A stretch of 56,958 nt of DNA. It comes from an uncultured Ulvibacter sp. Its GTDB lineage: Bacteria > Bacteroidota > Bacteroidia > Flavobacteriales > Flavobacteriaceae. How positions within the stretch are numbered: position 1 is the stretch's first letter; each line of letters starts with the position of its first letter. Position numbers and translations under genes: made by a program. This document shows positions 1-17,274 of this stretch, piece after piece. The notes under the pieces were generated by a model. That model saw nothing but the letters and a program-made list of their open reading frames with translations, had not been told where the DNA came from and searched no databases. The stretch lies in contig CALIAF010000029.1 of assembly GCA_938041335.1 (NCBI GenBank), forward strand, positions 1 through 56,958. Reading direction: 5' to 3'.

Positions 1-71
1 ACAGATCGTCCTTGTTCGTTTTCCTTGAGAGCCTTGATAATTTGACTCTCGCTAAATTTGCTTTGTTTCAT
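1..71 (-). CDS. IS3-family transposase OrfA, N-terminal fragment (runs off the window)
   Basis: Reading the reverse strand from the ATG at 71, the 23 visible codons begin MKQSKFSESQIIKALKE, followed by a few polar residues. This is the typical start of IS3-family OrfA proteins, whose N-terminal helix-turn-helix binds the element's ends. The rest of OrfA and all of OrfB lie outside the window. The element's outer end appears to be near 156, about 85 bases upstream of the start codon, as expected for an IS3 left end. The short sample limits certainty, but the motif is distinctive. Confidence 0.85.
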   Translation of the reverse strand, partial: MKQSKFSESQIIKALKENEQGRS

Positions 72-156
72 TGTGACAGTTTGAATTTAAAGTTAGTAAA
101 TTCGAATTAATTACTGTCCTATTTTTAGGGAAGCCTACAAAAGGGGGAAGCCTACA
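72..156. mobile_element. Terminal region of an IS3-family insertion sequence
   Basis: Upstream of the OrfA start the sequence carries two direct copies of GGGAAGCCTACA (128-139 and 145-156). Read from the outside in, the element would begin TGTAGGCTTCCC at 156, with the TG terminal dinucleotide usual for IS3-family ends. The other end lies off the window, so the inverted repeat and any target duplication cannot be verified. Confidence 0.65.
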
Positions 157-486
157 ATACTACATTATAGCTATCAAATGGATAAACCACTCTTATTAAC
201 TAAACAATACATTTGTACTATAATGTTTTGCGTTATGTCACTGTGCTTTGGTAAAAGCGAAGTTATAACCAAGCTTCATTGGTTTTTTTACATCTTAAAT
301 GTTTCTCACTTAGTTAATGCAACACTCTTTTTACGAAGCGACGATAGGAGCGTAGTGGAATGTGTGTGGAATGGGTTTATATTAACTGTTAATAATATCT
401 AATAAAATGGTTGTTTTAATATAACATAAAACTCTAAAAGACAGTACTTTTATTATCTATTTAAATTTTAAAAACCACATAATAAA
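157..486. other. Gene-free stretch between the IS end and the accessory operon
   Basis: No convincing gene is seen here. A 74-codon open frame (178-402) has no recognisable features. Next to the IS end, ATTATAGCTA (164-173) recurs at 6923-6932 in the repeat cluster on the far side of the operon. A terminator-like hairpin sits at 267-288. The last 80 bases are strongly AT-rich and probably hold the operon promoter, but I see no clean TAnnTTTG box. Confidence 0.5.
267..288 (+). terminator. Terminator-like hairpin
   Basis: AACCAA (267-272), loop GCTTCA, TTGGTT (279-284), then further T residues. No gene now lies directly upstream on this strand, so it may be left over from a gene displaced by the IS element. 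Confidence 0.4.
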
Positions 487-2994
487 TTGCTTAACCACAA
501 ACTTTACGATTTTAAATTACTATGGGAGTTTAAACATAAAATAGAAAATTTAAAACTTAAGTTTAATATTTTTAAGTTTAAAGCGAGGAAGAAGTATTTA
601 TTTGAACGTGAGAAACTTTCAGTACGAAAAATCTATTTATTTGAAATATCGAAAAATATATTAATAGCTATTTTGGTTGTTATTTCATTATCTCTAGTAG
701 AGTATTTTTCACAATTAATTTACACAAAATATATAGAAAATTCAACAAGTTGGTTTAAGACTGTTACAGATATTATACCTAAACCCAGCTATCCTGAAAA
801 TAAGGATTCTGTTAATGGTTTTGTATCATTATTGGCAAGTATTTCAGGTGTCCTTCTAGCGTTGTTTTATCCAATTTTAGCTACAATTGCTAGTTCTGGA
901 TATGCAAAAGTAAATTCTAGTATTAGGAATTTATTATTCCTAGAACCCATTACTCAAAACTATTTAAGAAGATTAGCTTTTTTAACAGCATATTCCGTTT
1001 GTGTTTTATTATTTGCAACTTTCGGGTATTACCCTGGAAATCTAATTCTTATTTTTTTATCGATTTTAAGTCTTATCAGTTTATTTAATCTATTAAAAAT
1101 AGGTGCTGGAGTTTATAGTCTTTTTGAACCAGAAACTTTAGCTAGAATTGCAAACAAACAAATTGTTGATAACATCAACAATGTAACAATACAAAGTGCA
1201 TATTGGAACAATTCAAATTTTCAAGTGTTTTTTAGAAGACAAGTTGAAAAAGATATAGAGATTTTAAGATTATTAAATATTATTAGTATTGAAGGAGTTC
1301 CAATTAATAAAACATCCTTCCTGAATACTGTCAATCAAACATTGGGTCTCTTAGAGTATTATTTAAATAAAAAAAGAAATATCCCATTAAAGAGTAGCTG
1401 GTTTAAAAACAAAAGAACTCATCAATCATATTTTGAAACAGATATGAGTGGTAGGGAATTAGCGATAAGTACAAGAACTTATATAATGCCAAAAGAAGTT
1501 TCAAACAATTTTTGGTTAGAAGAGGAGATTTTTAAAATATATAGTGAAATAGGAAAAAAAGTAGTCCTATTAGAGGATCAAGAAATACGTTATGAATATC
1601 TTTCTAATTCTGTGAGATTACTGCAATATTTTGGATATTCCTTAGAATTTGATTTAGCAAATCGATTACTTTCTGAAAATTTGAATATCACGACAAATTC
1701 ATTAATTCATAATGAAAACAATACCTACTCTAATTCTAAGACAAATTTAATTTTAATTGAAGCAATGATTTCTTCTTGTGTAAGAGACTTTCAAATTAGT
1801 TTTTTTCAATCCATTGAATCCCTAGATAGAGACAACTTCAATGCAGAAATAGAAAAAATAAATTGGAACGAAAAATCTTCTTTGTACAAGCTAAAATTGC
1901 CATATGTGTTAAATACATTTTTCGAAGATTATTTTAAATTCATTAATAATGAGAAATTAGTTGAGGATAAACAAATTACACCATTGTGGTACGTGATTCA
2001 ACATATTTCAGCTGAGTATTTATTGTTAGTAGAAAGAAAGTTTCAAAAAATCATAGATCAAATAGAGATTTTTGTAATTCCCCTAGTTGAAATTTGTAAA
2101 GAAAATAAAAATCATCTAGCCGTTTCTTTTGCTTGCCATTGTGCGTTAGAGCTAATTGATAAAATAAAGTTTAGGATTCCACGAATAAACCAAGTTATTG
2201 AAGAGTTTCAATCAAATAATATGCATATTGACTCACATAAATGGACGAAAATTGATACTGAGAAGGCTTATCTAAAACTAGATAAATTAAATAGTCAATT
2301 TGTTTTTGATATTGCTGATAGTATGCATGAGATATGTAATTTGACGTGGGATGATGATAATCCTGATATTTTTGCTCACTCATTTACAATAATTTCCAAC
2401 GAAATAAATGAATGTTATATTAATAATGATTTAGAGAAGTTTAGAAAATTATATCCAAGTTTTCTAGATAGTTCATTGGCATCTTTTTTTAGTTTATATA
2501 GAAGATATAAGGATAAATACTATCATCACTTAGAAATTATATATCAAGTACATATTGAATTAATTCAGCTTTCCGGCTTGGGTTATATCTACACTGAACT
2601 ATTAGAAACGCCTTTTTGGGAGGAAATTGTTAGGTCTTGGGATAAATTAAACTTAAATAAAAATCAAATAGAGCTAATTATGTCTTCTTATGATTATTAC
2701 AAAAATGATAAACATGGAACAGGTATTAATTTTACCGATAATTTTAATAGGGGAAGAAAATTAATGGATTTAATTAGAAGAAAAAATATAAATATTAATG
2801 ATTATAAAGATACAATAATTAGAAGGTACGTATCTGAAAGAAATATGTATAAAGATTATGAAGATATCTTCTTAGAGTTTTACTTATTTACATACATAGA
2901 CGCAAAAGATAGTGTAAAGGGTATCAATCAGGGTCGCAGGTCAGTTTTCTTTGACATTAACAGAATAATAGAGAAAAAGTATGGGGGAAATTAA
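487..2994 (+). CDS. Unrecognised four-helix membrane protein; first gene of the candidate defence operon
   Basis: This 835-residue protein matches no family I know. The N-terminal 50 residues are rich in Lys and Arg. Four hydrophobic segments follow at about 57-77, 112-135, 163-181 and 184-206. The remaining 620 residues are hydrophilic, probably helical and soluble. The start is TTG: the frame has an upstream stop shortly before it and no ATG before the membrane segments. The stop overlaps the next gene by 14 bases, so the two are co-translated. Base composition is visibly AT-richer than the chromosome beyond 7 kb, suggesting horizontal acquisition. A membrane-anchored component in a cluster with a nuclease-like gene could be a sensor or an effector. 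That is inference. Confidence 0.75.
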   Translation: MLNHKLYDFKLLWEFKHKIENLKLKFNIFKFKARKKYLFEREKLSVRKIYLFEISKNILIAILVVISLSLVEYFSQLIYTKYIENSTSWFKTVTDIIPKPSYPENKDSVNGFVSLLASISGVLLALFYPILATIASSGYAKVNSSIRNLLFLEPITQNYLRRLAFLTAYSVCVLLFATFGYYPGNLILIFLSILSLISLFNLLKIGAGVYSLFEPETLARIANKQIVDNINNVTIQSAYWNNSNFQVFFRRQVEKDIEILRLLNIISIEGVPINKTSFLNTVNQTLGLLEYYLNKKRNIPLKSSWFKNKRTHQSYFETDMSGRELAISTRTYIMPKEVSNNFWLEEEIFKIYSEIGKKVVLLEDQEIRYEYLSNSVRLLQYFGYSLEFDLANRLLSENLNITTNSLIHNENNTYSNSKTNLILIEAMISSCVRDFQISFFQSIESLDRDNFNAEIEKINWNEKSSLYKLKLPYVLNTFFEDYFKFINNEKLVEDKQITPLWYVIQHISAEYLLLVERKFQKIIDQIEIFVIPLVEICKENKNHLAVSFACHCALELIDKIKFRIPRINQVIEEFQSNNMHIDSHKWTKIDTEKAYLKLDKLNSQFVFDIADSMHEICNLTWDDDNPDIFAHSFTIISNEINECYINNDLEKFRKLYPSFLDSSLASFFSLYRRYKDKYYHHLEIIYQVHIELIQLSGLGYIYTELLETPFWEEIVRSWDKLNLNKNQIELIMSSYDYYKNDKHGTGINFTDNFNRGRKLMDLIRRKNININDYKDTIIRRYVSERNMYKDYEDIFLEFYLFTYIDAKDSVKGINQGRRSVFFDINRIIEKKYGGN

Positions 2995-3916
2995 AGAAGG
3001 ACAGCTATCTCTAGATTATGAATCTTCCAGAAATGATTTTCTGTTGAAGTTTAACTCATCCATGTTTATTCAGGATTTATCTATTTCAAAATATTCTGTA
3101 AAGGACGAGTTTTTATCCATTTCATTGGATTCAAAAAAGGAAGAAGAAATATGTGAATTTTTAGCAAATAAAGTGACTACATTTCAATATAGAAATCAAT
3201 ATTGGATGAATAGTTCTAATCTTGAAGATGAAATATTGCAATTAATAGAAACAATTTCAAATCAACTAACAAATAAAGGGCATTGTGTTTTTGAAAAAGT
3301 ATATGATGCAGGTAAATTGAGTAGATTAAAAATTGTAATTGGTGAAGTTAAGATTAAAAGGAATAACGTAGTGCAGATTATTCCTGATACAATTGCCTTA
3401 AAAAATGAATCTAAGAATAGAATTTCAATACCTAAAGAGAAGTGTTTTATAATTGACTTCCCAAAAAGCATTTGCTCAAGAAAAGAGTATCTAAATATTT
3501 TGAAAAAAATGCATGAAATAGATTCAAAAAACCCTATTCATTCATTTTTGAATCCATCAAGTTTAAATAAGGCTAATGGATATGATATGATGAAACATAG
3601 AGATAAACTAGATATAATTTTAAAAAGGTCAACGAAAAAAGTATCATGGCATCATAGAGAACAGTTTTCTTCGAAAGAGAAATTTTCATCGTATTATTCC
3701 ACATTAAGAAGTTTGAAATTTAGGCGTACAAAAATTATAATGTTGAATCATATTTTTGATTTTATTAAGTTAATTATTGAAGATGTTTTTAACGAAACAA
3801 CTTTGAAAATATCTTATATTAAAACATTAAATGAAATTGATAATATTATTCTTGAATATGAAAAAGGCAATTTTACAAGAGAGCAAAATTTAAAGATCAT
3901 AAAAGAATTCATGTGA
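2981..3916 (+). CDS. Unrecognised protein; second gene of the candidate defence operon
   Basis: This is a 311-residue protein with no signal peptide, no membrane segment and no motif I recognise. The first half is mixed; the second half is basic (for example the KRSTKKVSWHHRE stretch near residue 215) and ends in long predicted helices. Its ATG lies inside the end of the upstream gene (14-base overlap), and the downstream gene starts 28 bases after its stop, so it is the middle gene of a three-gene operon. The basic C-terminal half might contact nucleic acid, but nothing in the sequence proves this. Composition is AT-rich like its neighbours. Confidence 0.75.
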   Translation: MGEIKEGQLSLDYESSRNDFLLKFNSSMFIQDLSISKYSVKDEFLSISLDSKKEEEICEFLANKVTTFQYRNQYWMNSSNLEDEILQLIETISNQLTNKGHCVFEKVYDAGKLSRLKIVIGEVKIKRNNVVQIIPDTIALKNESKNRISIPKEKCFIIDFPKSICSRKEYLNILKKMHEIDSKNPIHSFLNPSSLNKANGYDMMKHRDKLDIILKRSTKKVSWHHREQFSSKEKFSSYYSTLRSLKFRRTKIIMLNHIFDFIKLIIEDVFNETTLKISYIKTLNEIDNIILEYEKGNFTREQNLKIIKEFM

Positions 3917-3944
3917 TTTGTTATGACACGATAAAATAATAATT

Positions 3945-6242
3945 ATGGGAGGAGCAGCAACAAATTCAGGAATTAACTATCAACAAAGAATAGCCGCTTT
4001 AGTACTAGTATCTCAATATTCTGACTTTGATTTATCGCCAGTATTTGGAATGAATAATTCGTTAAAAATTAATACTGTCCATTTTGAGACAGATGAACCA
4101 ATAGATGACTTAAAAATAGTTTGTGTTGACTATAAGTTATTACTTCAAATAAAAAGGTCATTAACATTTCAAACCGATGAAAATAGTGAGTTTTATAAAA
4201 CTCTAATGCAGTTTATTAATCAATATATTAATAAATCAAGAAATGAAGCATATATACTAGTTACATCACCTCAGACGTCAAGAACCATTACCCAAGATTT
4301 TAATAAAATTATTGAATCGATTCGTTTAAACGATGAATCATTTAAAGATAATCCTTTGAATAAATCCGAAAAAGAAACTTATATTAAATACAAAGATTTA
4401 TTTTATCTTATTTATGAAGAGAAGACAAAAAGCAAGCCAACTGAACGCGATTTTATAGACTTTTCAAAAAATGTTTTTATAAGTGTAGTTGATATAGAAA
4501 AAGGAAGACCTAATGAACAAGTTGCTCTACTTTTATTAAAAAGCATGAATCTAGTTGACCCAAATCTATTATGGGGCACTTTAATAACTAATTCACTAGA
4601 ATACGCTAGAAATAGGCAATCATTAAATAAACCAGCATTAGACAGTCTTTTAAATCGTTATATTAAAATCAATTCAAATGAAACGGGAGATAGCGATTTA
4701 GATGAAATGTTTAAAACGAAAATTATTGAAGATGGTCGTTTCTCTGTTGCAAAAGAAGTATTATTAATCGAGCCAAAAGATTTTGGTATAAAAGATATTG
4801 AAGAAAGCGATTATTTAGTAGTAGAGCTTTTTAGGTTTGATGACGAAGGAAATATTAAACATACTTTCCAAGATAATAAATTAAAACTAGATGGAGCATC
4901 AGAGGAAATTACTGTTTTACATAGGTCTGCAACTTTTGAAGGAATGACCAGACATCTAATGGAAAATGAAGATTTATATAAGGACAAAAAAATCGCAATA
5001 ATACCAGCTAATGATATTGATGAAGTTGAAAATACAGTATCAGCACAATTACATCGAAAATATTTACAAAGTCTGCAAGACTCGAACAAAGATGTAATGA
5101 AATGCTTGCATTGTGAAAAGACAGTTAACAGAAATAATAGCTTATTAATTGAAGTCGATGATTTGGATACAAACCCAGCTTTAGGGCTAGTACATGGTAA
5201 ATGTGCACGACAAGTTGATAGAGTATTAGGACTAGCTAAATCACCAAATGAAGAATCAATATCAATTTTAGATGATTTTGATTTTAAGAGTTGGGCGAAA
5301 TTTATGATGAAGGGTCAAGGACTTATAAATCAACTTCGTGCATCTTCATTAAAAAATAAATTACAAGTAATTGCTTGGAGCAGTGAAGATAAGAGCTCAA
5401 GAGATTATGGCTATTGCCTCAAATATGTTCTTATAGATGGACCAACAATATACGTTAGAGATAGAGGAAAGATACATAGATTTAAAAAATCTGACGCTGA
5501 AAAAACAAAAAATGAATTTAACCTTGGTTTAGAAAAAAGTCTAAAAGACAATAACCCCTTAGGTTATACCTCAAAAAATTTACTTTATGGAAATTATAAT
5601 CAATTAATTGAATTAATGGATGATGACGAAACGTTTTTAGAAGTAAAATCAGTTGAAATTTATAAATACAGTAAACTACAGGAGAAAGATGATCAATTTG
5701 TAAATTTTTATTCTCCTGTGTGTTTATTACTCGATAAAAAAGACAAGTCTTTATTAAATTTAGGAGGATTAGTACCAATAATTTCTGATCCATTAACATT
5801 TGAAAATATTTTTGAATCTTGGAAGAATCTTGGACTTGATATCAACATAGATGAACTTGAGTTCAAAATAATCGAAAGTGATGCTGAATTCGATGAGTAT
5901 ATGAGATTTTTTTTTAGCGATGGAATGAAGCCAGTTTTGGATCCAGTTTTCAATAAAAAAAGTAAAATTGTAAAAGGAGATATAATTGAGCATTTACAAG
6001 AACTAGAAGATAAATTAAAATCAAAAGAGGATCCACAAACTTGGAAAAAAGGTGATTTTGTTAGGCTAGAACTGCCTTCTTATTCTAATGGGAATTGTCC
6101 AAAAGGAGTTATACTAGAAGAGGAGTTCATTGGAGAGAATGGCAAAAAATTTGTCCTTTTTCAGCCAATTGACATAGAAAAAGGAGAGGAACCAATAGTA
6201 TTTTCAGTTCCTTCGGAGTTTTTAGTTAAATTGTATGTTTAA
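3945..6242 (+). CDS. Predicted PD-(D/E)XK-type nuclease (DUF4297-like N-terminus) with C2HC zinc cluster
   Basis: This 765-residue protein starts MGGAATNSGINYQQRIAALV. That resembles the first helix of DUF4297/Cap4-type restriction-fold nucleases found in bacterial defence proteins. It is followed by an acidic strand (E48, D54, D55) and a QIK motif (Q68, K70), the usual order of the PD-(D/E)XK active site in its QxK variant. A cysteine/histidine cluster C387-x2-C390...H417-x2-C420 looks like a treble-clef zinc site. The last 60 residues look beta-rich. I see no Walker A or STAND ATPase motif. The protein closes the three-gene operon. The nuclease fold is inferred from motif order only and could be degenerate. 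Confidence 0.7.
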   Translation: MGGAATNSGINYQQRIAALVLVSQYSDFDLSPVFGMNNSLKINTVHFETDEPIDDLKIVCVDYKLLLQIKRSLTFQTDENSEFYKTLMQFINQYINKSRNEAYILVTSPQTSRTITQDFNKIIESIRLNDESFKDNPLNKSEKETYIKYKDLFYLIYEEKTKSKPTERDFIDFSKNVFISVVDIEKGRPNEQVALLLLKSMNLVDPNLLWGTLITNSLEYARNRQSLNKPALDSLLNRYIKINSNETGDSDLDEMFKTKIIEDGRFSVAKEVLLIEPKDFGIKDIEESDYLVVELFRFDDEGNIKHTFQDNKLKLDGASEEITVLHRSATFEGMTRHLMENEDLYKDKKIAIIPANDIDEVENTVSAQLHRKYLQSLQDSNKDVMKCLHCEKTVNRNNSLLIEVDDLDTNPALGLVHGKCARQVDRVLGLAKSPNEESISILDDFDFKSWAKFMMKGQGLINQLRASSLKNKLQVIAWSSEDKSSRDYGYCLKYVLIDGPTIYVRDRGKIHRFKKSDAEKTKNEFNLGLEKSLKDNNPLGYTSKNLLYGNYNQLIELMDDDETFLEVKSVEIYKYSKLQEKDDQFVNFYSPVCLLLDKKDKSLLNLGGLVPIISDPLTFENIFESWKNLGLDINIDELEFKIIESDAEFDEYMRFFFSDGMKPVLDPVFNKKSKIVKGDIIEHLQELEDKLKSKEDPQTWKKGDFVRLELPSYSNGNCPKGVILEEEFIGENGKKFVLFQPIDIEKGEEPIVFSVPSEFLVKLYV

Positions 6243-6441
6243 ACGGCCTCAGAAACTCTTGGCTCAAACAATAGGTGAGAGGAGTGGCCATATTTTAGAG
6301 AGCTAGCAAAATATAGTATTGACATTATTAAAGTTTAAATCTAGTTCTAAACACACTTAAGACATTCAAAACCTTTCTAAAATATAGCGATACGAGCCGT
6401 AATTGTTTCCAAGGGTTTGTGCAGCCTTGATTTTTTTGTTT

Positions 6442-6463
6442 CTTTTTTGATCAAGCAAAAAAG
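6442..6463. repeat. Perfect hairpin 200 bp after the accessory operon
   Basis: CTTTTTTG (6442-6449), loop ATCAAG, CAAAAAAG (6456-6463). The stem is 8 bp and A/T-rich. It could act as a weak terminator for the operon, but it lies 200 bases after the last stop. Confidence 0.4.
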
Positions 6464-6735
6464 ATAAGAATGAATAATAGACTATAACGATCACCAAATT
6501 TCTATTTTACATAATATTGACAAGCACAATCTAAAAAAAAATCAACAGGAGACCGAATTTGAGCAAGTGCTTAGAAATTTACTCGCAGAGAAATTTTAAG
6601 CTTTTGCGGAACGTTTTACGAGAATGTCGTAGAAAAAAATCTTGCAGGATTTTCCCCAAATAACGTAATTGTGGTATAAAGCAAAAGTTAAGCTTTTTTT
6701 TGGTGTGGCCAAGCGTTGGACAATTGTGTGTATAG

Positions 6736-6756
6736 AAAAATGCATTGAGCATTTTT
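6736..6756. repeat. Perfect 8-bp hairpin within the intergenic repeat
   Basis: AAAAATGC (6736-6743), loop ATTGA, GCATTTTT (6749-6756). It is followed by a GC-rich patch, GGTTGGGCGCGGCAA (6776-6790). The combination resembles dispersed intergenic repeats in flavobacteria; this is from memory and was not searched. Confidence 0.4.
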
Positions 6757-6905
6757 ATTTACAAAGCAATCTAGCGGTTGGGCGCGGCAATTTTACATAA
6801 CGGCTAATTATGGGACATTGCGATGAATCTTCGAGTTAGACCAAACTAAAAAGTTTAATGACCACCAGACAAACATAAAATGAGCCAGACGATATAATCA
6901 GGGAT

Positions 6906-6999
6906 ATTTTACATAATATAGAATTATAGCTACACAGACTACACATTAATGAAACTAACATAATAATCAAAATGTACTATAATTTACATTATGTAAAAT
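6906..6999. repeat. Imperfect 23-24 bp inverted repeat
   Basis: The left arm (6906-6929) begins ATTTTACATAATATAG and ends ATTATAG. The right arm (6977-6999) is its near-complement. The first 12 bases pair exactly, and the inner part differs by a few positions. Both arms contain the half-site that resembles the XerD-binding arm of dif, so they may be two inverted Xer sites about 40 bp apart. Confidence 0.5.
6972..6999 (+). other. Candidate XerC/XerD recombination site (dif-like)
   Basis: The 28 bases divide into ATGTACTATAA, a 6-bp centre TTTACA, and TTATGTAAAAT. The last 11 bases match the XerD half of E. coli dif (TTATGTTAAAT) and of B. subtilis dif (TTATGTAAACT) at 10 of 11 positions each. 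By eye about 21 of 28 positions agree with the B. subtilis site as I remember it. This could be the chromosomal dif or an attachment site of an element that exploits Xer. Neither the terminus position nor binding can be judged from this window. Confidence 0.5.
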
Positions 7000-7075
7000 A
7001 GATAATTCCAACAGCCCTATAAACCCCCACATCTTCCTAATCCGCCAGAATCCCTTAAAACAATTTAAATATTCA

Positions 7076-7618
7076 TTATTCCTTAATAACAAACTCCTTA
7101 AGATCGCCTTCATACTTTATAAAAGTACGCTTAGAGCTATTTACATTCATATCACAATTACCGCTGGGATAGACCGTAATATGAAATTCATAATGCTCCA
7201 TTTCGTGGGTAGCTTTAAAATAAATATGGGTGCGTTTTTTCTTTTGGTTGTAGCTTACTTCATAATCTTCTATCGCATCATTTAAAACAATACCAATATT
7301 GTTTGCATTTGCACTACCAAATCGCTGCTCCCCATAATAGGATATATCTGCTAGTACTTTGTTATCACTAATCCTTAAAAAATCACCACGGCCCTGCAGA
7401 TTGATTCTATTCACGGTATTTCCTGCTCCTAACATATTACTATTGGCGATCTGGCTCAATGCGTTCGTTACAAACGGAAAAGCAACCGTGCAATTAATTT
7501 CAAAAGAAGGTTCGTTTAGCCAGGTTTCATTTGCAGCAACAAGCGTTGATGTTTGCGATGTTTCCGAAGTTTTACAACTTACCAAGATCCCTATTAATGC
7601 AATTAGTATATATTTCAT
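7076..7618 (-). CDS. DUF4251-family lipoprotein
   Basis: A small exported protein of 180 residues from the ATG at 7618 (an ATG three codons upstream at 7627 is possible). It begins MKYILIALIGILVSCK, a lipoprotein signal with Cys at about position 15, so it should be anchored in a membrane. The body (INLQGRGDFLRISDNKVLADISYYGEQRF..., then a basic strand and IYFKATHEMEHYEFHITVY) fits the DUF4251 beta-sheet family common in Bacteroidota, whose function is unknown. It stands alone at the junction between the accessory island and the ordinary chromosome and is divergent from the thioredoxin-like gene. Confidence 0.8.
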   Translation of the reverse strand: MKYILIALIGILVSCKTSETSQTSTLVAANETWLNEPSFEINCTVAFPFVTNALSQIANSNMLGAGNTVNRINLQGRGDFLRISDNKVLADISYYGEQRFGSANANNIGIVLNDAIEDYEVSYNQKKKRTHIYFKATHEMEHYEFHITVYPSGNCDMNVNSSKRTFIKYEGDLKEFVIKE

Positions 7619-7761
7619 ATGGCTCATTTTTACATTTTAATCACAAAAAACGTGCTATAATTTTCTCACCACAATCATATACTCTTTATACAATATACCA
7701 ATGCTGAAAAAGACACCTTTTTATCTAATGTGTTTTATTAAAGATACGACAATCTATCAAG

Positions 7762-7792
7762 TTGTGATTTCATACCTAGAATCATATCTTTG
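7762..7792 (+). promoter_or_regulatory. Bacteroidota-type promoter of the TlpA-like gene
   Basis: TTG (7762-7764), a 20-base spacer, then TATCTTTG (7785-7792), which matches the Bacteroidota -7 consensus TAnnTTTG. Transcription should begin near 7798, so the GTG at 7792 cannot be the start codon and the ATG at 7819 or later must be used. Confidence 0.7.
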
Positions 7793-7818
7793 TGACCACA
7801 CGTATTACACAAAAAAAA

Positions 7819-8985
7819 ATGTTTATGAATCGCATTGCAATGAACTTAAAGCTCCTACTTTTAGGAGGTATTAGCTTATCTATGAGCCTAGGCTGTCAAC
7901 AGGATATTGCTAAAGAAATTAGCTCAGAAACTCACAAAGGGTACACCATTGCAGGGACCATTATCAATCAAGATGCCGCTATGCTTTATTTAGTGGATAG
8001 TAAGGAGCAGATTGTAGATTCTACAGCAATTACCAACTCCTCCTTTGTTTTAAAAGGAACGGTGGTACAACCAGATTCTTACAATTTGGTTTTTAAGAAT
8101 CAGCTCCAACCCTACGCTATTATTGTTGAGAACACCAGCTTCAAGGTGTTTATCAATCAGGACCAAATGATGATTGCTGGTGGCGATTTAAATACGAAGT
8201 TGACCGCTTTTCAAAAAAACGAAGATATGCATAATGAGCATCGACTCACCGCTCTAAATAGTTTTGCCACAAAATTAATAACCGAAAAGGCGCTTCACAC
8301 CTCATTAGATTCTATTTCTAAAATGGAATCCCAATTTGCCATACGTTTTATTGAAGAGAACCAAGATAACCTGCTCTCTTCTATAGGCTTAGCGGCTACA
8401 GACTTACAATTAGATGCCGTACTTAGTTTATCTGAAAATACAAAAGATGCAAAAAACACGCATTTAGTAAATACAATAAGTGAAAATCTAACGGCACTAC
8501 AAAAAGAAGAAGATATCCGGAATACGGCACTAGCAAAAGAAGCAGAAGTAAAAGATGTAGTAGAAAAAGTGTATCGAGCTCCTGCTCCATATTTTACTGG
8601 AGAATCACTTAATGGCTCAGACTTGGCATTCGCAAACGTATTAAAAGGTAAAAAAGCAGTATTGATAGACTTCTGGGCTAGTTGGTGTAAACCTTGTCGT
8701 ATGATAACACCTCAAGTTCGTGCCATACACCAGCGATATAGAGATCTAGGATTTGATGTGATTACTGTTTCACTAGATAAAAATAGAGCAGCCTGGAAAC
8801 AAGGTGTTTTAGAAGACCAGATGTCTTCTTGGAATCATATTTATGATGAAAGTAAAGATATTTCGTACTCCTATAGTGTTAGAGCCATACCTCATATGGT
8901 TTTAGTAGATGGTGAAGGCAGGATTATAGAAAATAAAATTTCTATCACGAAGCTAAAAAGTGAATTAACTAAAATCTTTAAATAA
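7819..8985 (+). CDS. TlpA/ResA-like thioredoxin-fold lipoprotein with DUF4369 domain
   Basis: A periplasmic thiol-disulphide oxidoreductase anchored as a lipoprotein (signal ends in SLSMSLGC). Residues about 35-125 form a DUF4369-type beta domain (YTIAGTIINQDAAMLYLVD). A helical linker follows, then a thioredoxin domain from about 260 with the WCKPC active site (C290, C293) and the cis-proline RAIPHMV near the end. Such proteins keep periplasmic thiols reduced, for example during cytochrome maturation; the substrate here is unknown. The start was set from the promoter: an in-frame GTG at 7792 lies inside the -7 box. ATGs at 7825 and 7840 are also possible starts. The reading frame ends 29 bases before a convergent transporter gene. 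Confidence 0.87.
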   Translation: MFMNRIAMNLKLLLLGGISLSMSLGCQQDIAKEISSETHKGYTIAGTIINQDAAMLYLVDSKEQIVDSTAITNSSFVLKGTVVQPDSYNLVFKNQLQPYAIIVENTSFKVFINQDQMMIAGGDLNTKLTAFQKNEDMHNEHRLTALNSFATKLITEKALHTSLDSISKMESQFAIRFIEENQDNLLSSIGLAATDLQLDAVLSLSENTKDAKNTHLVNTISENLTALQKEEDIRNTALAKEAEVKDVVEKVYRAPAPYFTGESLNGSDLAFANVLKGKKAVLIDFWASWCKPCRMITPQVRAIHQRYRDLGFDVITVSLDKNRAAWKQGVLEDQMSSWNHIYDESKDISYSYSVRAIPHMVLVDGEGRIIENKISITKLKSELTKIFK

Positions 8986-9013: not shown

Positions 9014-9919
9014 TCAATCATCATTATTGACTACCGGTCGCTTTCTACTATTTATAAAATAGACTCCAATTAATAGTATCCCAGCGGCAAGCATAGACTG
9101 CCCGGTAATCGTCTCATCCAGAAAGTACCATCCTAGCAATAAAGCCACAATAGGATTAATATACGCAGAGGTAGTCACCTTCTCTGTGTCAACCACTTTA
9201 AGCAAATAATTAAACGAAGTAAAAGCAGCTATACTCCCAAAAAGCACCAAACAAAGTAATGAAATAGAAACATCTAGCTCCCAATTTTTTGGTGAGATCC
9301 ACTCCTCTCCTAGTATGAGACTGGTCGCAATTAAGAGTACACTAGCAATGGCCATTTGGTAGGCGGTAGACACAAAATGATTTTTAGGGAAATCTGCCTT
9401 AGCCACAAAGACACTACCTATACTCCAAGCCACCACAGCACTCAGCGCCATTAGAATTCCAATGCCACTCCCCGTTTCTAGACGCAACTCTTTCTGGCTA
9501 ATTAATAAAACCATTCCAGCAATACCAAATAGAATCCCAACTATAGTAAGAGGTTTCATTCTTCTTTTATGCATTACAGCTAGTATCACTACCACAAATA
9601 AGGGGTTTAAAGAAGATATTAAAGACCCAAAACCACTGTCTATATATTTAAGCGCCCACACAAACATCCCGTTACCAAAAGCTAAAAACAGAAATCCAGC
9701 AATGAAACAATTAATAAATTGGCGTTTAGTAATTGCCAGTGATAGCCCCAAAATCTTGGTGATACCAAAAACTAAGAACGCTGCGATACTCATTCGTATT
9801 CCAGAGATATAGAATGGTGCCAGCTGTGTTACTGCAATTTTATTCCATAAATAGGTACTGCCCCAAAAGACATAGATGGAAAAAAATGCAAGAATAATGA
9901 GAAGTAGGTTTCTTTTCAC
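9014..9919 (-). CDS. EamA-family (DMT superfamily) transporter
   Basis: About 300 residues with ten hydrophobic helices arranged as two EamA repeats (roughly 5-140 and 150-290). The first repeat starts with FWGSTYLWNKIAV and the second with VVAWSIGSVFVAKADFP. Members export small metabolites; the substrate cannot be told from sequence. No ATG precedes the first helix. I chose the GTG at 9919 giving MKRNLLLII, but a GTG at 9943 would add eight residues. The gene is convergent with the TlpA-like gene and appears to be a single-gene unit. Confidence 0.85.
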   Translation of the reverse strand: MKRNLLLIILAFFSIYVFWGSTYLWNKIAVTQLAPFYISGIRMSIAAFLVFGITKILGLSLAITKRQFINCFIAGFLFLAFGNGMFVWALKYIDSGFGSLISSLNPLFVVVILAVMHKRRMKPLTIVGILFGIAGMVLLISQKELRLETGSGIGILMALSAVVAWSIGSVFVAKADFPKNHFVSTAYQMAIASVLLIATSLILGEEWISPKNWELDVSISLLCLVLFGSIAAFTSFNYLLKVVDTEKVTTSAYINPIVALLLGWYFLDETITGQSMLAAGILLIGVYFINSRKRPVVNNDD

Positions 9920-10362: not shown

Positions 10363-10465
10363 TGCTTAGCTTTTTTTCATAAACCCAATGATCATAGTTA
10401 TCATTAGTCGCTTTTAAATTGAAAAACTGCGCTATATACTTGTATCGAAGGTGTACTTCTGCGGC

Positions 10466-11683
10466 TTGAAAAACACCACAAAAAAATCGCAACTAGAATT
10501 TATCGCTTTAATGGCGGCATTAATGTCTGTCACGGCATTGTCTATTGATGCCTTACTCCCAGCTCTTGGAGTAATTGGCGAGGAGATTGGTACTGTCACA
10601 GCAGCAGATAATCAGCTTTTAGTGACTATGATTTTTGTTGGTTTGGGTATTGGACCCTTAGTTTTTGGACCATTGTCTGACGCAACAGGAAGAAAACCCT
10701 CCGTATATCTAGGCTTTATTATTTTTATAATCGCGAGCATCATTTGCATAAACGCAGATAGTTTACAAGTCATGATTATTGGGCGTATACTTCAAGGCGT
10801 AGGGCTCTCTGCACCTCGTACTATTTGTATCGCTATTATTAGAGATTTATTTGATGGGGATTACATGGCGCGTATTATGTCTTTTGTCACTGTTGTTTTT
10901 CTATTAATACCAATCGTGGCTCCCGCAATGGGCAAGTTTGTTTTAAATCATTACGACTGGAAAGGGATATTCTATGTTCAGATTATTATAAGTATTCTGG
11001 TGGCCGGCTGGTTCTGGCTTCGGCAAAAAGAGACGATCCATCCCGAAAATAAAATACCTTTTTCATTAGACAGAATCACAAAGGGATTTGTAGAAACCTT
11101 AAGGCAAAAAGAGACCATGGGATATACACTTATCTCAGGTTTTGTGGTGGGTTCATTTTTAGTGTATCTCAGTGCCTCACAGCAGATTTTTGAAGTACAA
11201 TATAATATGGCAGATCAGTTTCCTTATATTTTTGCTGGCCTGGCGATTGCCATTGGTGCTGCCATTATTCTCAACGCCACCTTTGTTATCCGTTTTGGGA
11301 TGCAAAAAATGGTGACCTATTCTCTCTACGGCTTCTTTGCCGTTTCTTTATTATACGTGATCTTATTTTATAACAATGCCCACCCTCCTATTGCCGTATT
11401 ACTTGGATTCTTTGCCGTGCAGTTTTTCTGTATTGGTTTTCTCTTCGGAAACGTTAGAGCCCTTGCCATGCAGCCCTTAGGTCATATTGCAGGCATTGCA
11501 GCTGCAGTCACTGGGTTTATATCTACATTGATGGCCGTGCCTATTAGCACCTTTATTGGAAGATTTGTGGAGCATAGCACGCTTCCCTTATTCATGGGCT
11601 TTTCAGCCTGCTCATTCATTGCTATTTGTGTCTTATTATATATCAAAAAAGCAACACGGCATATTTCCGAAGCACCGATTTAA
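10466..11683 (+). CDS. Bcr/CflA-family MFS multidrug transporter
   Basis: A drug/H+ antiporter-type major facilitator with twelve hydrophobic helices in about 405 residues. The start FIALMAALMSVTALSIDALLPALG and the loop GPLSDATGRKPSVY (MFS motif A between helices 2 and 3) are diagnostic. GRILQGVGLSAPRTICIAIIRD is the usual helix-4/5 segment of Bcr/CflA exporters. The likely start is TTG at 10466 (MKNTTKKSQ); a GTG at 10451 would add five residues. It is preceded by an imperfect -7 box, TATACTTG (10435-10442), and followed at once by a terminator. Confidence 0.88.
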   Translation: MKNTTKKSQLEFIALMAALMSVTALSIDALLPALGVIGEEIGTVTAADNQLLVTMIFVGLGIGPLVFGPLSDATGRKPSVYLGFIIFIIASIICINADSLQVMIIGRILQGVGLSAPRTICIAIIRDLFDGDYMARIMSFVTVVFLLIPIVAPAMGKFVLNHYDWKGIFYVQIIISILVAGWFWLRQKETIHPENKIPFSLDRITKGFVETLRQKETMGYTLISGFVVGSFLVYLSASQQIFEVQYNMADQFPYIFAGLAIAIGAAIILNATFVIRFGMQKMVTYSLYGFFAVSLLYVILFYNNAHPPIAVLLGFFAVQFFCIGFLFGNVRALAMQPLGHIAGIAAAVTGFISTLMAVPISTFIGRFVEHSTLPLFMGFSACSFIAICVLLYIKKATRHISEAPI

Positions 11684-14790: not shown

Positions 14791-16139
14791 CTCTTATTGC
14801 GTCTATTGAAATTCTTGTCTCCTTTGGTTTTAGGCTTTTTGTACTTCGCGGCAATTTTATATTGATAAGAACCTCCCCTATTTTCTTTGGAGTTCTTTTC
14901 ACTCTTCTCATGAAAACTAGGTCCTGGCACGTGCTCATCACTTGCTTTGTGAGGATTATTAGGCTCGTGAACCTGTGGCATTTCTTCTGGTAAAAGCTTT
15001 GTAGCCGTTTCTACTTCACTCGGCATTTCCAATAATGGAATTTTATAATCCATTAAAGCTTCAATAGCTTCTTTTGCTTGGGCCTCCTTTTCTGTTGAGA
15101 ATAAAATGGAATGACCCTGCGCCTCTGCCCTACCAGTTCTACCTATGCGGTGCATATAGTTTTCTGCATAACGCGGCACATCCATATTAAAAACATGCGT
15201 GATTCGATCAAGGTCTAATCCACGAGCCATTATATCTGTAGAGATTAATATTCTTTTTTCGCCTTTATTAAAATTCTCAATAGACCTTAGACGATAGTTT
15301 TGCGTTTTGTTACTGTGAATAACAGATGCTTGACCAGGGAAAAAATCATCTACCTCTCTGTAAAGCGTATCTGCTTGTCTTTTATTCGGTACAAAAACTA
15401 ACACCTTTGTGTAGATGTCTTCCTCTTGTAAAAGATGGTTTAATAGATTTGCTTTAGTGTAAAAATTTGGCGCCTCATAAGATTCTTGTGCTATATTATC
15501 TAAAGGCGTACCGCTTACTGCCACAGATATTTTTACCGGACTTCTAAAAAAATCATCAATCAAAACTTCCACATCATCTGTCATCGTTGCAGAAAATAGA
15601 ATATTCTGTCTTTTATCTGGGAGCAGCTCAAAAATATTAGTGATCTGAAAACGGAAACCTAAATCGAGCATGACATCTACTTCGTCAATGATTAGTTTTT
15701 TGACATTCTTTAAACTTACCGCCCTGCTTAATGCTAGGTCATATAACCTTCCCGGGGTTGCTACAACAATATCACAACCTTGTGACACGGCTTCTTTGTG
15801 GGTGTTTATATTAACACCGCCATAGACTCCCGTTACTCTTACAGAAAGATACTTCCCTATTTTTTCAATTTCTTCTACTACTTGAACTACTAATTCTCGT
15901 GTAGGTACTAATACTAAAACTCTTGGGTTGATCTCTCTAGAGTATTTTAACGTTTCTAATACTGGCAGCATATAGGCAAAAGTTTTACCTGTACCCGTTT
16001 GTGCGATACCCACCATATCTTTTCCTGCTTTTATGACAGAAAAAGACTGCTCTTGAATGGGTGTAGGCGTTGTAATACCTAGATCATCTATCCCGAACTG
16101 GAGCTGTTTACCTAGTTTTAAATCTGAAAAAGTGGTCAT
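14787..16139 (-). CDS. DEAD-box-type RNA helicase (DEVD variant)
   Basis: About 450 residues from the ATG at 16139 (MTTFSDLK). Motifs in order: Q motif (GITTPTPIQEQ), Walker A AQTGTGKT, PTRELV, TPGR, motif II DEVD in place of DEAD, SAT in FSATM, then RGLDLDRITHV and HRIGRTGR. A lysine-rich tail ends in NFNRRNKR and probably binds RNA. These helicases remodel RNA in ribosome assembly and mRNA decay, often in the cold. An ATG nine codons further upstream is less likely. It precedes and is coupled to the acetyltransferase gene. Confidence 0.92.
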   Translation of the reverse strand: MTTFSDLKLGKQLQFGIDDLGITTPTPIQEQSFSVIKAGKDMVGIAQTGTGKTFAYMLPVLETLKYSREINPRVLVLVPTRELVVQVVEEIEKIGKYLSVRVTGVYGGVNINTHKEAVSQGCDIVVATPGRLYDLALSRAVSLKNVKKLIIDEVDVMLDLGFRFQITNIFELLPDKRQNILFSATMTDDVEVLIDDFFRSPVKISVAVSGTPLDNIAQESYEAPNFYTKANLLNHLLQEEDIYTKVLVFVPNKRQADTLYREVDDFFPGQASVIHSNKTQNYRLRSIENFNKGEKRILISTDIMARGLDLDRITHVFNMDVPRYAENYMHRIGRTGRAEAQGHSILFSTEKEAQAKEAIEALMDYKIPLLEMPSEVETATKLLPEEMPQVHEPNNPHKASDEHVPGPSFHEKSEKNSKENRGGSYQYKIAAKYKKPKTKGDKNFNRRNKR

Positions 16140-16234
16140 ACCCGTAGAATTTTGGCAAAGGTACAAGAACTATTATTCTTAAGATATCTAAAGTTCAATT
16201 ACATAAAGTGATATATTTACATTAAAAACCAAAT

Positions 16235-16828
16235 ATGAAAAAATCACTAATAGTACTGGTCGTTTTATTCTTTTCAATCCAGCACGTTTCCGCACAGGTA
16301 AAAGAAATAAAAATAGAGGAAGAACGCGTTAATAATAGGCTCATGCTTTATGGCGTGAACGAAAACTTACAAGATCTTGATGTAACGATGACGGTTGAAG
16401 GGACTGGTTTTAGGCAAAGTACCCGTAAACCAAGAGCTTTTAGAATACCAGCAACTTCGAGGGTAAACCTTTTAATGTTGATGGTAAATAAAGGAGAAAC
16501 GCCTAATTACACGTATGAATTGGCTGTAACAGACAGCTTAAGTAGAAGGGCCTTACGCAAACCAGCAACACCTATAAAAATTGATCCTAAAAGCCCTATT
16601 ATTTTTTATGTTTCTGAAACGTGCCAGACTTGTGATTCGCTAGTGTCATCACTAGATAAGAGCCCTTACAGATATAGCATCACGCGATTTGCAGATCACC
16701 CAGAAATTAAAAACCAAATAAAGGCAGCAATCCCAGAACTAGACACTGTTAGTAATGCCATAGTAAACCTAAAAGGAAAGTTATTTGTAGATATTGAAAC
16801 GTTAGAAGAGTTGTTGAGTAAATTATAA
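16235..16828 (+). CDS. Exported protein with a CxxC thioredoxin/glutaredoxin-like C-terminal domain
   Basis: This 197-residue protein has a signal peptide (MKKSLIVLVVLFFSIQHVSAQ). A beta-rich N-terminal half (to about residue 115) precedes a small domain starting PIIFYVSETCQTCDSLVSSL, with the CQTC pair near 129-132, as in glutaredoxin-like folds. It could act as a periplasmic redox protein; I do not recognise the family. The RDD-protein gene begins 17 bases downstream, so the two probably form an operon. Confidence 0.75.
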   Translation: MKKSLIVLVVLFFSIQHVSAQVKEIKIEEERVNNRLMLYGVNENLQDLDVTMTVEGTGFRQSTRKPRAFRIPATSRVNLLMLMVNKGETPNYTYELAVTDSLSRRALRKPATPIKIDPKSPIIFYVSETCQTCDSLVSSLDKSPYRYSITRFADHPEIKNQIKAAIPELDTVSNAIVNLKGKLFVDIETLEELLSKL

Positions 16829-16845
16829 GTATTACCAAATAGAAC

Positions 16846-17274
16846 ATGCAAATAATAGATCAAAACGAAACTCAGCAATTTATCATGGCTGATAAAGGAA
16901 CTAGATTTGGAAATAATATCATAGACACCATCGTCTTTTATTTCCTTATTTTTTTAAGCGCCATGCTCTTTGATGAAGTGTTAGGGATTGTACCAGAAGG
17001 TGGTTCGGGTTGGTTCTTAATATATTTTGTGTTCTTGTATATTATATTCCACACCGGTTTTGAGCATTTTTTCAGTAAAACACCTGGAAAATTTTTGACA
17101 AAAACAACAGTGGTAAATAAAGATGGCAATAAGCCGACTTTTAGTAATCTATTAGGGCGCAATGCAGCTAGACTGATTCCTTTTGATGGGCTATCATTTC
17201 TAATATCTGAAAGAGGATGGCACGATCAATTGTCTAACACGTATGTGATTAAAGATATAAAACAGCAGGAATAA
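16846..17274 (+). CDS. RDD-family membrane protein
   Basis: 142 residues. The RDD hallmarks are the N-terminal Arg in DKGTRFGNNIIDTIVFYFLIF, the SKTPGKFLTKTTVV loop and the C-terminal WHDQLSNTYVI. Two or three hydrophobic helices are visible (about 24-42 and 55-75). RDD proteins sit in the inner membrane, and some act in sodium or pH balance; the role here is unknown. It follows the CxxC protein gene and ends at a strong terminator. Confidence 0.85.
   Translation: MQIIDQNETQQFIMADKGTRFGNNIIDTIVFYFLIFLSAMLFDEVLGIVPEGGSGWFLIYFVFLYIIFHTGFEHFFSKTPGKFLTKTTVVNKDGNKPTFSNLLGRNAARLIPFDGLSFLISERGWHDQLSNTYVIKDIKQQE

What the first reader, a model, noticed from the sequence alone, without database searches (positions are those of the whole stretch)
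487..6242. Undescribed three-gene operon that looks like a defence system
Three tightly packed genes (14-base overlap, 28-base gap) encode a four-helix membrane protein with a 600-residue soluble part, a protein with no recognised domain, and a predicted restriction-fold nuclease with a zinc cluster. The AT-rich cluster lies between an IS3 end and a repeat-rich non-coding region, which is typical accessory-island placement. I know of no named system with this gene order. The nuclease motifs follow established PD-(D/E)XK knowledge; the defence role is inference.
Basis: partly seen in the sequence, partly recalled or inferred. Interest (0 to 1): 0.72.

Follow-up and report, generated by a model that had tools for sequence, protein, structure and literature searches.

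The report
Two stacked immune modules in cassette
What looked like one three-gene bacterial defence operon appears to be two separate units, an undescribed membrane gene pair and a self-contained DNA-cutting-type protein built like known phage-defence effectors, side by side between two copies of a repeated DNA element that elsewhere also encloses defence-type genes.

Summary
The three genes are real and placed as described, but they are not a conserved three-gene system. The membrane gene (g1) and the 311-aa gene (g2) form a pair: all 7 g1 loci found (six independent) carry g2 next to it, and only the window has g3 nearby. g3 is separable. Its N-terminal part matches the nuclease end of a PADLOC defence candidate (1.6e-26). 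Its ~510-residue C-terminal part is fused to a caspase instead of a nuclease in one other genome, and a full-length relative sits beside Hachiman on an Agrobacterium plasmid. g3 is therefore very probably an immune effector with an exchangeable killing domain. For g1-g2 a defence role is plausible but circumstantial: plasmid and IS settings, purifying selection, a truncated PD-T7-1 gene in the same interval in Polaribacter filamentus. The cluster lies between direct copies of a ~0.9-kb non-coding element with dif-like sites. The same element brackets a PDC-S60 defence candidate elsewhere in this genome, and the g1-g2 cassette of P. filamentus with a different third gene. No phage test exists.

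The parts
487..2994 (+). g1: 835-aa membrane protein, four N-terminal transmembrane helices plus ~600-residue helical part, probably cytosolic (topology inferred); first gene of a conserved two-gene unit
   Evidence: ORF; hydropathy; model; relatives in L005, L006, L007, L013, L014, L015; dN/dS
2981..3916 (+). g2: 311-aa soluble protein of unknown fold, found directly after g1 in 7 of 7 loci
   Evidence: phmmer/tblastn of neighbours; alignment A6; no convincing family; AF2 model too weak to use (pLDDT 45)
3945..6242 (+). g3: 765-aa stand-alone effector-type protein
   Evidence: ORF; Agrobacterium full-length relative; caspase-fused relative
3945..4700 (+). g3 N-terminal nuclease-type domain (residues 1-252), E48..D54D55..Q68xK70
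   Evidence: PADLOC PDC-M54A N-terminus 1.6e-26; alignment A9; LmuA hit of the Agrobacterium relative 5.5e-5
4707..6239 (+). g3 C-terminal module (residues 255-765), joined to a caspase instead of the nuclease in G246
5103..5204 (+). predicted zinc site C387-x2-C390 ... H417-x2-C420 in the C-terminal module
   Evidence: invariant in 3 of 3
1..139 (-). end of an IS3-type insertion sequence that cuts the upstream repeat copy and ends the contig
   Evidence: 100% copy at G000:C40; OrfA start
140..384 (+). 3' part of the upstream copy of the repeat element (5' part missing beyond the IS)
   Evidence: 84% to L013 4602-4833, 78% to L013 9730-9904; dif-like site 219-240 on the - strand
6241..6996 (+). 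downstream, direct-repeat copy of the element, with dif-like sites at 6793-6812(+), 6909-6928(+) and 6978-6996(-)

Best explanation
The locus is a cassette with two functionally independent immune modules. Module A (g1-g2) is a two-gene unit: a four-helix membrane protein whose large helical cytosolic arm probably binds the soluble partner g2, which senses or transmits an infection signal; activation would disturb the membrane and stop the cell (abortive infection). Module B (g3) is a one-gene effector: the C-terminal zinc-containing module senses or is switched by infection, then releases or oligomerises the N-terminal PD-(D/E)xK-type nuclease, which cuts DNA. The cassette is held between direct copies of a ~0.9-kb non-coding element, so cargo can be exchanged. 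SHOWN by sequence: the genes, the pairing of g1 with g2, the separability of g3, one effector swap on g3's C-terminal module, conserved nuclease-type residues, the flanking direct repeats. INFERRED: nuclease activity, zinc binding, sensing, membrane action, binding of g2 to g1, defence as the role, and cassette exchange by recombination.
For: g1-g2 adjacency in 7 of 7 loci, six independent, in Bacteroidota, Bacillota and Pseudomonadota plus one unclassified MAG. g3 within the fetched flanks in 1 of 7. Homology between window and P. filamentus runs through g1 and g2 (211-3874), stops before g3 and resumes at the repeat (6241); in P. filamentus that slot holds a transposase and a 5'-truncated PD-T7-1 (2e-94). 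g3 N-terminus: PDC-M54A 1.6e-26; relatives of it stand at the N-terminus of 1562-1620-aa proteins with weak AAA/STAND NTPase hits. g3 C-terminus fused to Peptidase_C14 (3.8e-15) in G246, with a nearby gene matching PADLOC 'cll' 7.2e-16. Agrobacterium g3 next to HamA 2.9e-97 and HamB E=0. Purifying selection on g1 and g2. Patchiness: g1 in 1 of 98 genomes of the relatives set, the own one; 10 other same-genus genomes negative, of which 4 are at least 90% complete.
Against: g1 and g2 match no defence family: 0 of 6 g1, and 1 of 6 g2 with a 39-residue PDC-S06 hit at 0.0025 that I take as noise. Only some g1-g2 neighbourhoods have defence-type genes: PD-T7-1 remnant in L013, PDC-S31 (1.5e-38) about 2 kb upstream in Dyella L015, a VapC toxin beside the Burkholderia copy. 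Near the Paenibacillus pair I saw only a helicase with weak DpdE/ZorD hits (0.003-0.005); L014's neighbours were not run against PADLOC. No matched control was run for how often random accessory genes lie near such genes. Pfam's Cap4_nuclease model does not hit g3 or the Agrobacterium relative. The g2 model is unusable. Only two relatives of the g3 C-terminal module turned up, so the swap rests on one caspase protein. The close packing of g2 and g3 allows co-transcription, so a local functional link is not excluded.
Confidence: 0.66

Rival explanations
1. A genuine three-component system: g1 anchors, g2 bridges, g3 cuts, and the other loci are degraded or variant forms.
For: Tight packing, 28-base gap between g2 and g3, same strand, similarly low G+C.
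Against: g3 missing in 6 of 6 other g1-g2 loci; both relatives of the g3 C-terminal part lack g1-g2 in the 12-22 kb fetched; homology with P. filamentus breaks between g2 and g3.
Confidence: 0.1
2. g3 is a defence effector but g1-g2 is not defence: it is an accessory membrane pair of plasmids and islands with another role (for example surface, transport or plasmid maintenance).
For: No convincing defence family hit for g1 or g2; three g1 loci are on plasmids with mostly ordinary or IS neighbours; the repeat element also encloses non-defence genes in P. filamentus and peptide-export type genes in G554.
Against: Shares a repeat-bounded interval with PD-T7-1 in P. filamentus and with g3 here; PDC-S31 nearby in Dyella; patchy distribution.
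Confidence: 0.28
3. g1-g2 is a toxin-antitoxin-like or abortive pair in which g2 neutralises or controls the membrane protein g1 and which only secondarily acts on phages.
For: Constant gene order with overlap or close spacing; membrane protein first, soluble partner second.
Against: g1 is far larger than usual membrane toxins (size norm recalled); nothing tests toxicity here.
Confidence: 0.25

Closest known systems
PDC-M54 (PADLOC defence candidate; M54A about 1,620-1,660 aa, with M54B)
   Same: g3 residues 2-254 match the N-terminus of M54A (1.6e-26)
   Different: g3 lacks the rest of M54A and has no M54B beside it; instead it has a zinc-site C-terminal module
Cap4/DUF4297-type nuclease effectors (CBASS Cap4, Lamassu LmuA, HerA-DUF4297)
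   Same: N-terminal PD-(D/E)xK-type nuclease with a separate C-terminal regulatory part; the Agrobacterium relative hits LmuA at 5.5e-5. DUF4297-HerA degrades DNA and works by abortive infection (PMC11291478, passages seen); LmuA has variable effector domains (PMC10586767, passages seen)
   Different: Pfam PF14130 does not hit; g1 and g2 match no HerA, LmuB, LmuC or CD-NTase model
Caspase-domain effectors of bacterial conflict systems
   Same: A caspase replaces the nuclease on the same C-terminal module in G246
   Different: The window protein carries no caspase; the shared module reaches no Pfam cut-off
Hachiman (HamA/HamB)
   Same: The Agrobacterium g3 relative lies directly upstream of HamA-HamB
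   Different: No HamA or HamB in the window cluster
pdif/dif modules of Acinetobacter and integron cassettes
   Same: Exchangeable genes between repeats holding CATAA-N(5-9)-TTAT sites, like Xer sites (comparison recalled; listing and start of abstract of PMC12907356 seen)
   Different: Repeat is about 0.9 kb with two or three sites of varied spacing; no integrase or Xer activity was tested

Membership tests
   0 of 6 other g1-g2 loci have g3 in the fetched DNA (15-22.5 kb each); 0 of 2 relatives of the g3 C-terminal part have g1-g2
g1-g2 two-gene unit | g2 directly follows g1 wherever g1 is found | tested here: met
   7 of 7 loci, six independent
Cap4/DUF4297 nuclease (PF14130) | match to the Pfam model | tested here: not met
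   no PF14130 hit at E<=1 for g3 nor at E<=0.5 for the Agrobacterium relative; none in the own genome, but no control genome rang either, so one search is uninformative
PD-(D/E)xK-type nuclease | conserved acidic residues followed by (D/E/Q)xK | tested here: met
   E48, D54, D55, D62, Q68, K70 invariant in 5 of 5; fold and activity not tested
PDC-M54 | full-length M54A with M54B partner | tested here: not met
   only residues 2-254 match; no M54B hit for g1 or g2
Lamassu | LmuA effector with SMC-like LmuB neighbour | tested here: not met
   no LmuA hit for g3 itself and no LmuB hit for g1 or g2; other window genes not scanned
Caspase effector sharing the g3 C-terminal module | same C-terminal module on a caspase | tested here: met
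   L016 9325-11643(-): C14 3.8e-15, g3 match 7.2e-98; one example
DUF2254 membrane proteins (considered for g1) | profile similarity to PF10011 | tested here: inconclusive
   with 12 correct DUF2254 rows hhalign gives E 0.0014-0.0015, probability 17%, in the transmembrane stretch; 2 of 40 block-shuffled controls do as well or better. No Pfam hit for g1
Known anti-phage system for g1-g2 | match to a PADLOC model | tested here: not met
   0 of 6 g1; 1 of 6 g2 with a 39-residue PDC-S06 hit at 0.0025
Anti-phage defence system | reduces phage plating | not testable with these tools
   needs plaque assays
Xer/dif module | dif-like sites in the bounding repeats | tested here: inconclusive
   4 sites in the window, all in the element, 0.83 expected; 9 in L013, 0.26 expected; 0 in 60 kb of other stretches L047-L049. 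But the pattern was drawn by eye from these copies and the likeness to dif is recalled
Xer/dif module | site-specific excision by XerC/XerD | not testable with these tools
   needs junction PCR
Integron | integron integrase and attC sites | not tested

The most novel reading that the evidence does not exclude
g1-g2 is an undescribed two-gene, membrane-acting anti-phage system found in at least three phyla; g3 founds a family of one-gene effectors in which one zinc-containing sensor module is paired with interchangeable killing domains (nuclease or caspase); and both travel in an integron-like cassette array of Flavobacteriaceae-type genomes whose ~0.9-kb boundary repeats carry dif-like sites and whose cargo (g1-g2-g3, PDC-S60, g1-g2 with PD-T7-1, peptide-export clusters) is exchanged at fixed chromosomal sites.
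Probability: 0.22. Interest if true: 0.82.

Novelty: new variant of a known kind. Interest (0 to 1): 0.56.

Why it matters
If right, it adds a wide-ranging but rare membrane gene pair to the list of testable immune candidates, shows a regulatory module shared by a nuclease-type and a caspase effector (a direct handle on what that module senses), and points to a repeat-bounded cassette route by which marine Bacteroidota may swap immune genes. It also corrects a likely error: testing the three genes only as one system would miss that either part may act alone.

Tried and rejected
DUF2254 as the parent of the g1 membrane part (a resemblance recalled from memory). My first two comparisons used wrong rows: L034 and L045 were wrong ORFs, and L034, L038 and L042 lie on the other strand, so two of these gave no ORF; one search repeated the strand error. 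One search, with all 12 loci read in the right frame, gives E 0.0014-0.0015 (probability 17%) against 2 of 40 shuffled controls at that level or better: suggestive, not enough to file g1 there.

A phage-portal-like fold for g2, suspected by eye: PHROGs gave only unnamed hits at E>=0.049, the Paenibacillus g2 has no phage match at E<=1, and Foldseek on the weak g2 model gave nothing better than E=1 (portals appear at ranks 19 and 27 with E>4). Not pursued.

Structure search for g1: of the 50 PDB hits listed, one is below E 0.001 (8ga7, 2.4e-4, a designed repeat protein); the rest are designed repeats and HEAT/MUN-type and other helical proteins, with TM by query length at most 0.25. No viral hit at E<=0.001. 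Only 'helical superhelix' can be said.

Weak hits taken as noise: G386 for g2 (E 8.6e-4, inside a dihydrouridine-synthase-like ORF), G220 for g1 (50 residues, 5.7e-4), ISP1_C (0.0017) and PDC-S06 (0.0025), each in 1 of 6 g2, zf-BED (0.59) and PRK08306 (0.11) on g3, the PDB sequence hits of the g1, g2 and g3 profiles (best 0.032).

Replication terminus (true dif) at the downstream site: the G+C skew changes near 7 kb in the window, but there is no clear switch at the matching place in G554. Rfam: no match at E<=0.1 in 1-7700. Viral contigs: no relative of g1 or g3 in 4 scans; no phage record for g1 or g3 at E<=1e-3.

One search's similarity table came out empty through a scripting fault and was redone.

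Full report
Observation. The three ORFs, the 14-base overlap, the 28-base gap, the four N-terminal hydrophobic regions of g1, the lack of a known domain in g2 and the nuclease-type residues and zinc-type site of g3 are all there. G+C is 27.4% in the cluster and 36.1% from 7076 on. The contig starts inside an IS copy (1-139, 100% identical to a second place in the genome). The window is a whole contig of a 3.25-Mb, 63-contig assembly.

g1-g2 is a unit of its own. g1 relatives (20-22% identity to the window protein, 70% in P. filamentus) were found on a Burkholderia glumae plasmid, two near-identical Paenibacillus plasmids, in P. filamentus, Dyella mobilis and an unclassified MAG. In each the next gene downstream is a g2 relative: 7 of 7 loci counting the window, six independent. 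In P. filamentus even the 14-base overlap is kept. Substitutions against P. filamentus give dN/dS about 0.09 for g1 and 0.21 for g2, rough because dS is saturated. None of the six other loci has g3 within the 15-22.5 kb fetched. The pair is rare: g1 in 1 of 98 genomes of the relatives set, the own one (10 other same-genus genomes negative, 4 of them at least 90% complete), and one credible hit, own, in 395 genomes of the class (a second, 50-residue hit I take as noise). The single genome-contig scan that gave three of the loci uses short conserved stretches and misses distant members, so the counts are lower bounds.

g3 is a modular effector. Its first ~250 residues match the N-terminus of PADLOC candidate PDC-M54A (1.6e-26). 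The same domain stands at the N-terminus of 1562-1620-aa proteins in two Streptomyces and a Rhizobium, with weak AAA/STAND hits; the Rhizobium one is a full PDC-M54A with M54B beside it. E48, D54, D55, D62, Q68 and K70 are invariant in the 5 aligned. The Agrobacterium protein also hits LmuA weakly (5.5e-5). The Pfam Cap4 nuclease model does not hit, so I do not file g3 in that family. The remaining ~510 residues, with an invariant C-x2-C...H-x2-C, are joined in genome G246 to a caspase domain (C14, 3.8e-15) in place of the nuclease, and a gene about 0.7 kb further on matches PADLOC 'cll' (7.2e-16). Searches for g3 or its C-terminal part found 2 of 395 class genomes (own and G246) and 1 of 198 phylum genomes (own). 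On the Agrobacterium plasmid the full-length relative lies just upstream of a complete HamA-HamB pair, with VapBC and RelE-type genes further up. Nuclease on one copy and caspase on another, on a shared C-terminal module, is the pattern known for immune effectors: LmuA-type effectors are described as having variable enzymatic domains (PMC10586767, passages read), and a DUF4297 nuclease works by abortive DNA degradation (PMC11291478, passages read). That g3 works like these is my inference.

The cassette. DNA homology to P. filamentus covers window 211-3874 (72%), stops before g3, and resumes at 6241-6811 (70%). Between those two points P. filamentus has a DDE transposase and a 5'-truncated PD-T7-1 gene (2e-94, profile positions 147-446 of 452). 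PD-T7-1 protects E. coli against phages (PMC9519451, passages read). The flanking sequence is a repeat of about 0.9 kb: upstream copy at 140-384, lacking its 5' part beyond the IS, and downstream copy at 6241-6996, in direct orientation. P. filamentus has three copies (4053-4845, 9018-9919, 15987-16915). The own genome has another at the end of contig C9, and the gene between it and a partial copy there is a nearly full-length PDC-S60 (E=0, metallophosphatase plus STAND NTPase). In a second species of the genus (G554) a copy sits next to a 49%-identical counterpart of window gene 7792-8985, with gene 10451-11683 also syntenic, though the window has one more small gene (7076-7627) between. A second nearly whole copy lies about 8 kb on (L046 498-1414) and partial copies at about 17-23 kb, with other cargo: a Cro/C1-type gene and peptide-export type genes. 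The best conserved stretches of the element are ATTTTACATAA and GGGATATTTTACATAAT...ATTATAG. The motif T-N-ACATAA-N(4-9)-TTAT(A/G) occurs 4 times in the window, all in the element, against 0.83 expected, 9 times in L013 against 0.26, and not at all in 60 kb of other stretches L047-L049; since I drew the motif from these copies, the excess shows repetition, not function. The layout CATAA-N6-TTAT is that of Xer/dif sites (recalled). Not all enclosed genes are defence: the other P. filamentus interval holds LytTR and kinase genes, a CAAX protease and a beta-lactamase-like gene.

Mechanism, with likelihoods. g3 as a DNA-cutting abortive effector switched by its C-terminal module: about 0.8. g1-g2 as a defence pair acting at the membrane: about 0.45, on circumstantial grounds (PD-T7-1 in the same interval, PDC-S31 near the Dyella pair, plasmid and IS settings). 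Independence of the two modules: about 0.85. Exchange of cassettes by recombination at the repeats: about 0.35; homologous recombination between direct repeats, or plain repeat-rich intergenic DNA, are alternatives.

Novelty. g1: no Pfam hit for the window, Burkholderia and Paenibacillus proteins (the other three not run), no PADLOC hit for 6 of 6. g2: one weak Pfam and one weak PADLOC hit in 1 of 6 each, only unnamed weak PHROGs. NCBIfam was run on the window proteins only. PDB sequence searches with the g1, g2 and g3 profiles gave nothing below 0.03. Literature searches for PDC-M54 (0 papers), PDC-S06, DUF2254, Cap4/Lamassu/DUF4297, PD-T7-1, caspase/Cap4 and ABC-3C, integron/Xer and Flavobacteriaceae cassette terms did not show this pair or this nuclease/caspase module in the titles and abstract starts listed; the library holds only open-licence papers, and apart from passages of four papers I saw listings only. 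I rate it a new variant of a known kind: effector logic known, composition new, g1-g2 possibly new altogether.

Noticed in passing
window 140-384 and 6241-6996; L013 4053-4845, 9018-9919, 15987-16915; L032 9645-10359; L027 10594-11360; L046 498-1414: A ~0.9-kb non-coding repeat with dif-like sites bounds accessory genes in three genomes; the copies next to the chromosomal flank in the window, L013 and L027 end in a CATAA-N6-TTAT site, while copies inside an array carry a longer-spaced site and a ~150-base extension.
   Followed up: partly
L032 6394-9636 (own genome, contig C9): A metallophosphatase-STAND NTPase protein matching PADLOC candidate PDC-S60 over nearly its full length lies between copies of the same repeat.
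   Followed up: partly
L016 9325-11643 and 7799-8596: A caspase fused to the g3 C-terminal module, with a nearby gene that matches PADLOC 'cll'.
   Followed up: partly
L027 and L046 (genome G554, contig C3 about 210.6-234 kb): Whole and partial repeat copies recur; the intervals hold a Cro/C1-type gene, peptidase-ABC exporters and ATP-grasp/SPASM-like genes, probably peptide (RiPP) clusters (RiPP naming recalled).
   Followed up: no
L014 5010-5930, L015 12480-13448 and other g2 rows: g2 proteins differ strongly in their first ~60 residues while the rest aligns; part of this may be wrong start codons.
   Followed up: no
window 7000: G+C skew is positive to about 7 kb and mostly negative after it; part of this is the gene strand of the foreign cluster.
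   Followed up: partly
window 487-1120 (g1 residues 1-212): The g1 transmembrane part shows a weak profile resemblance to DUF2254 (E 0.0014; 2 of 40 shuffles as good).
   Followed up: partly
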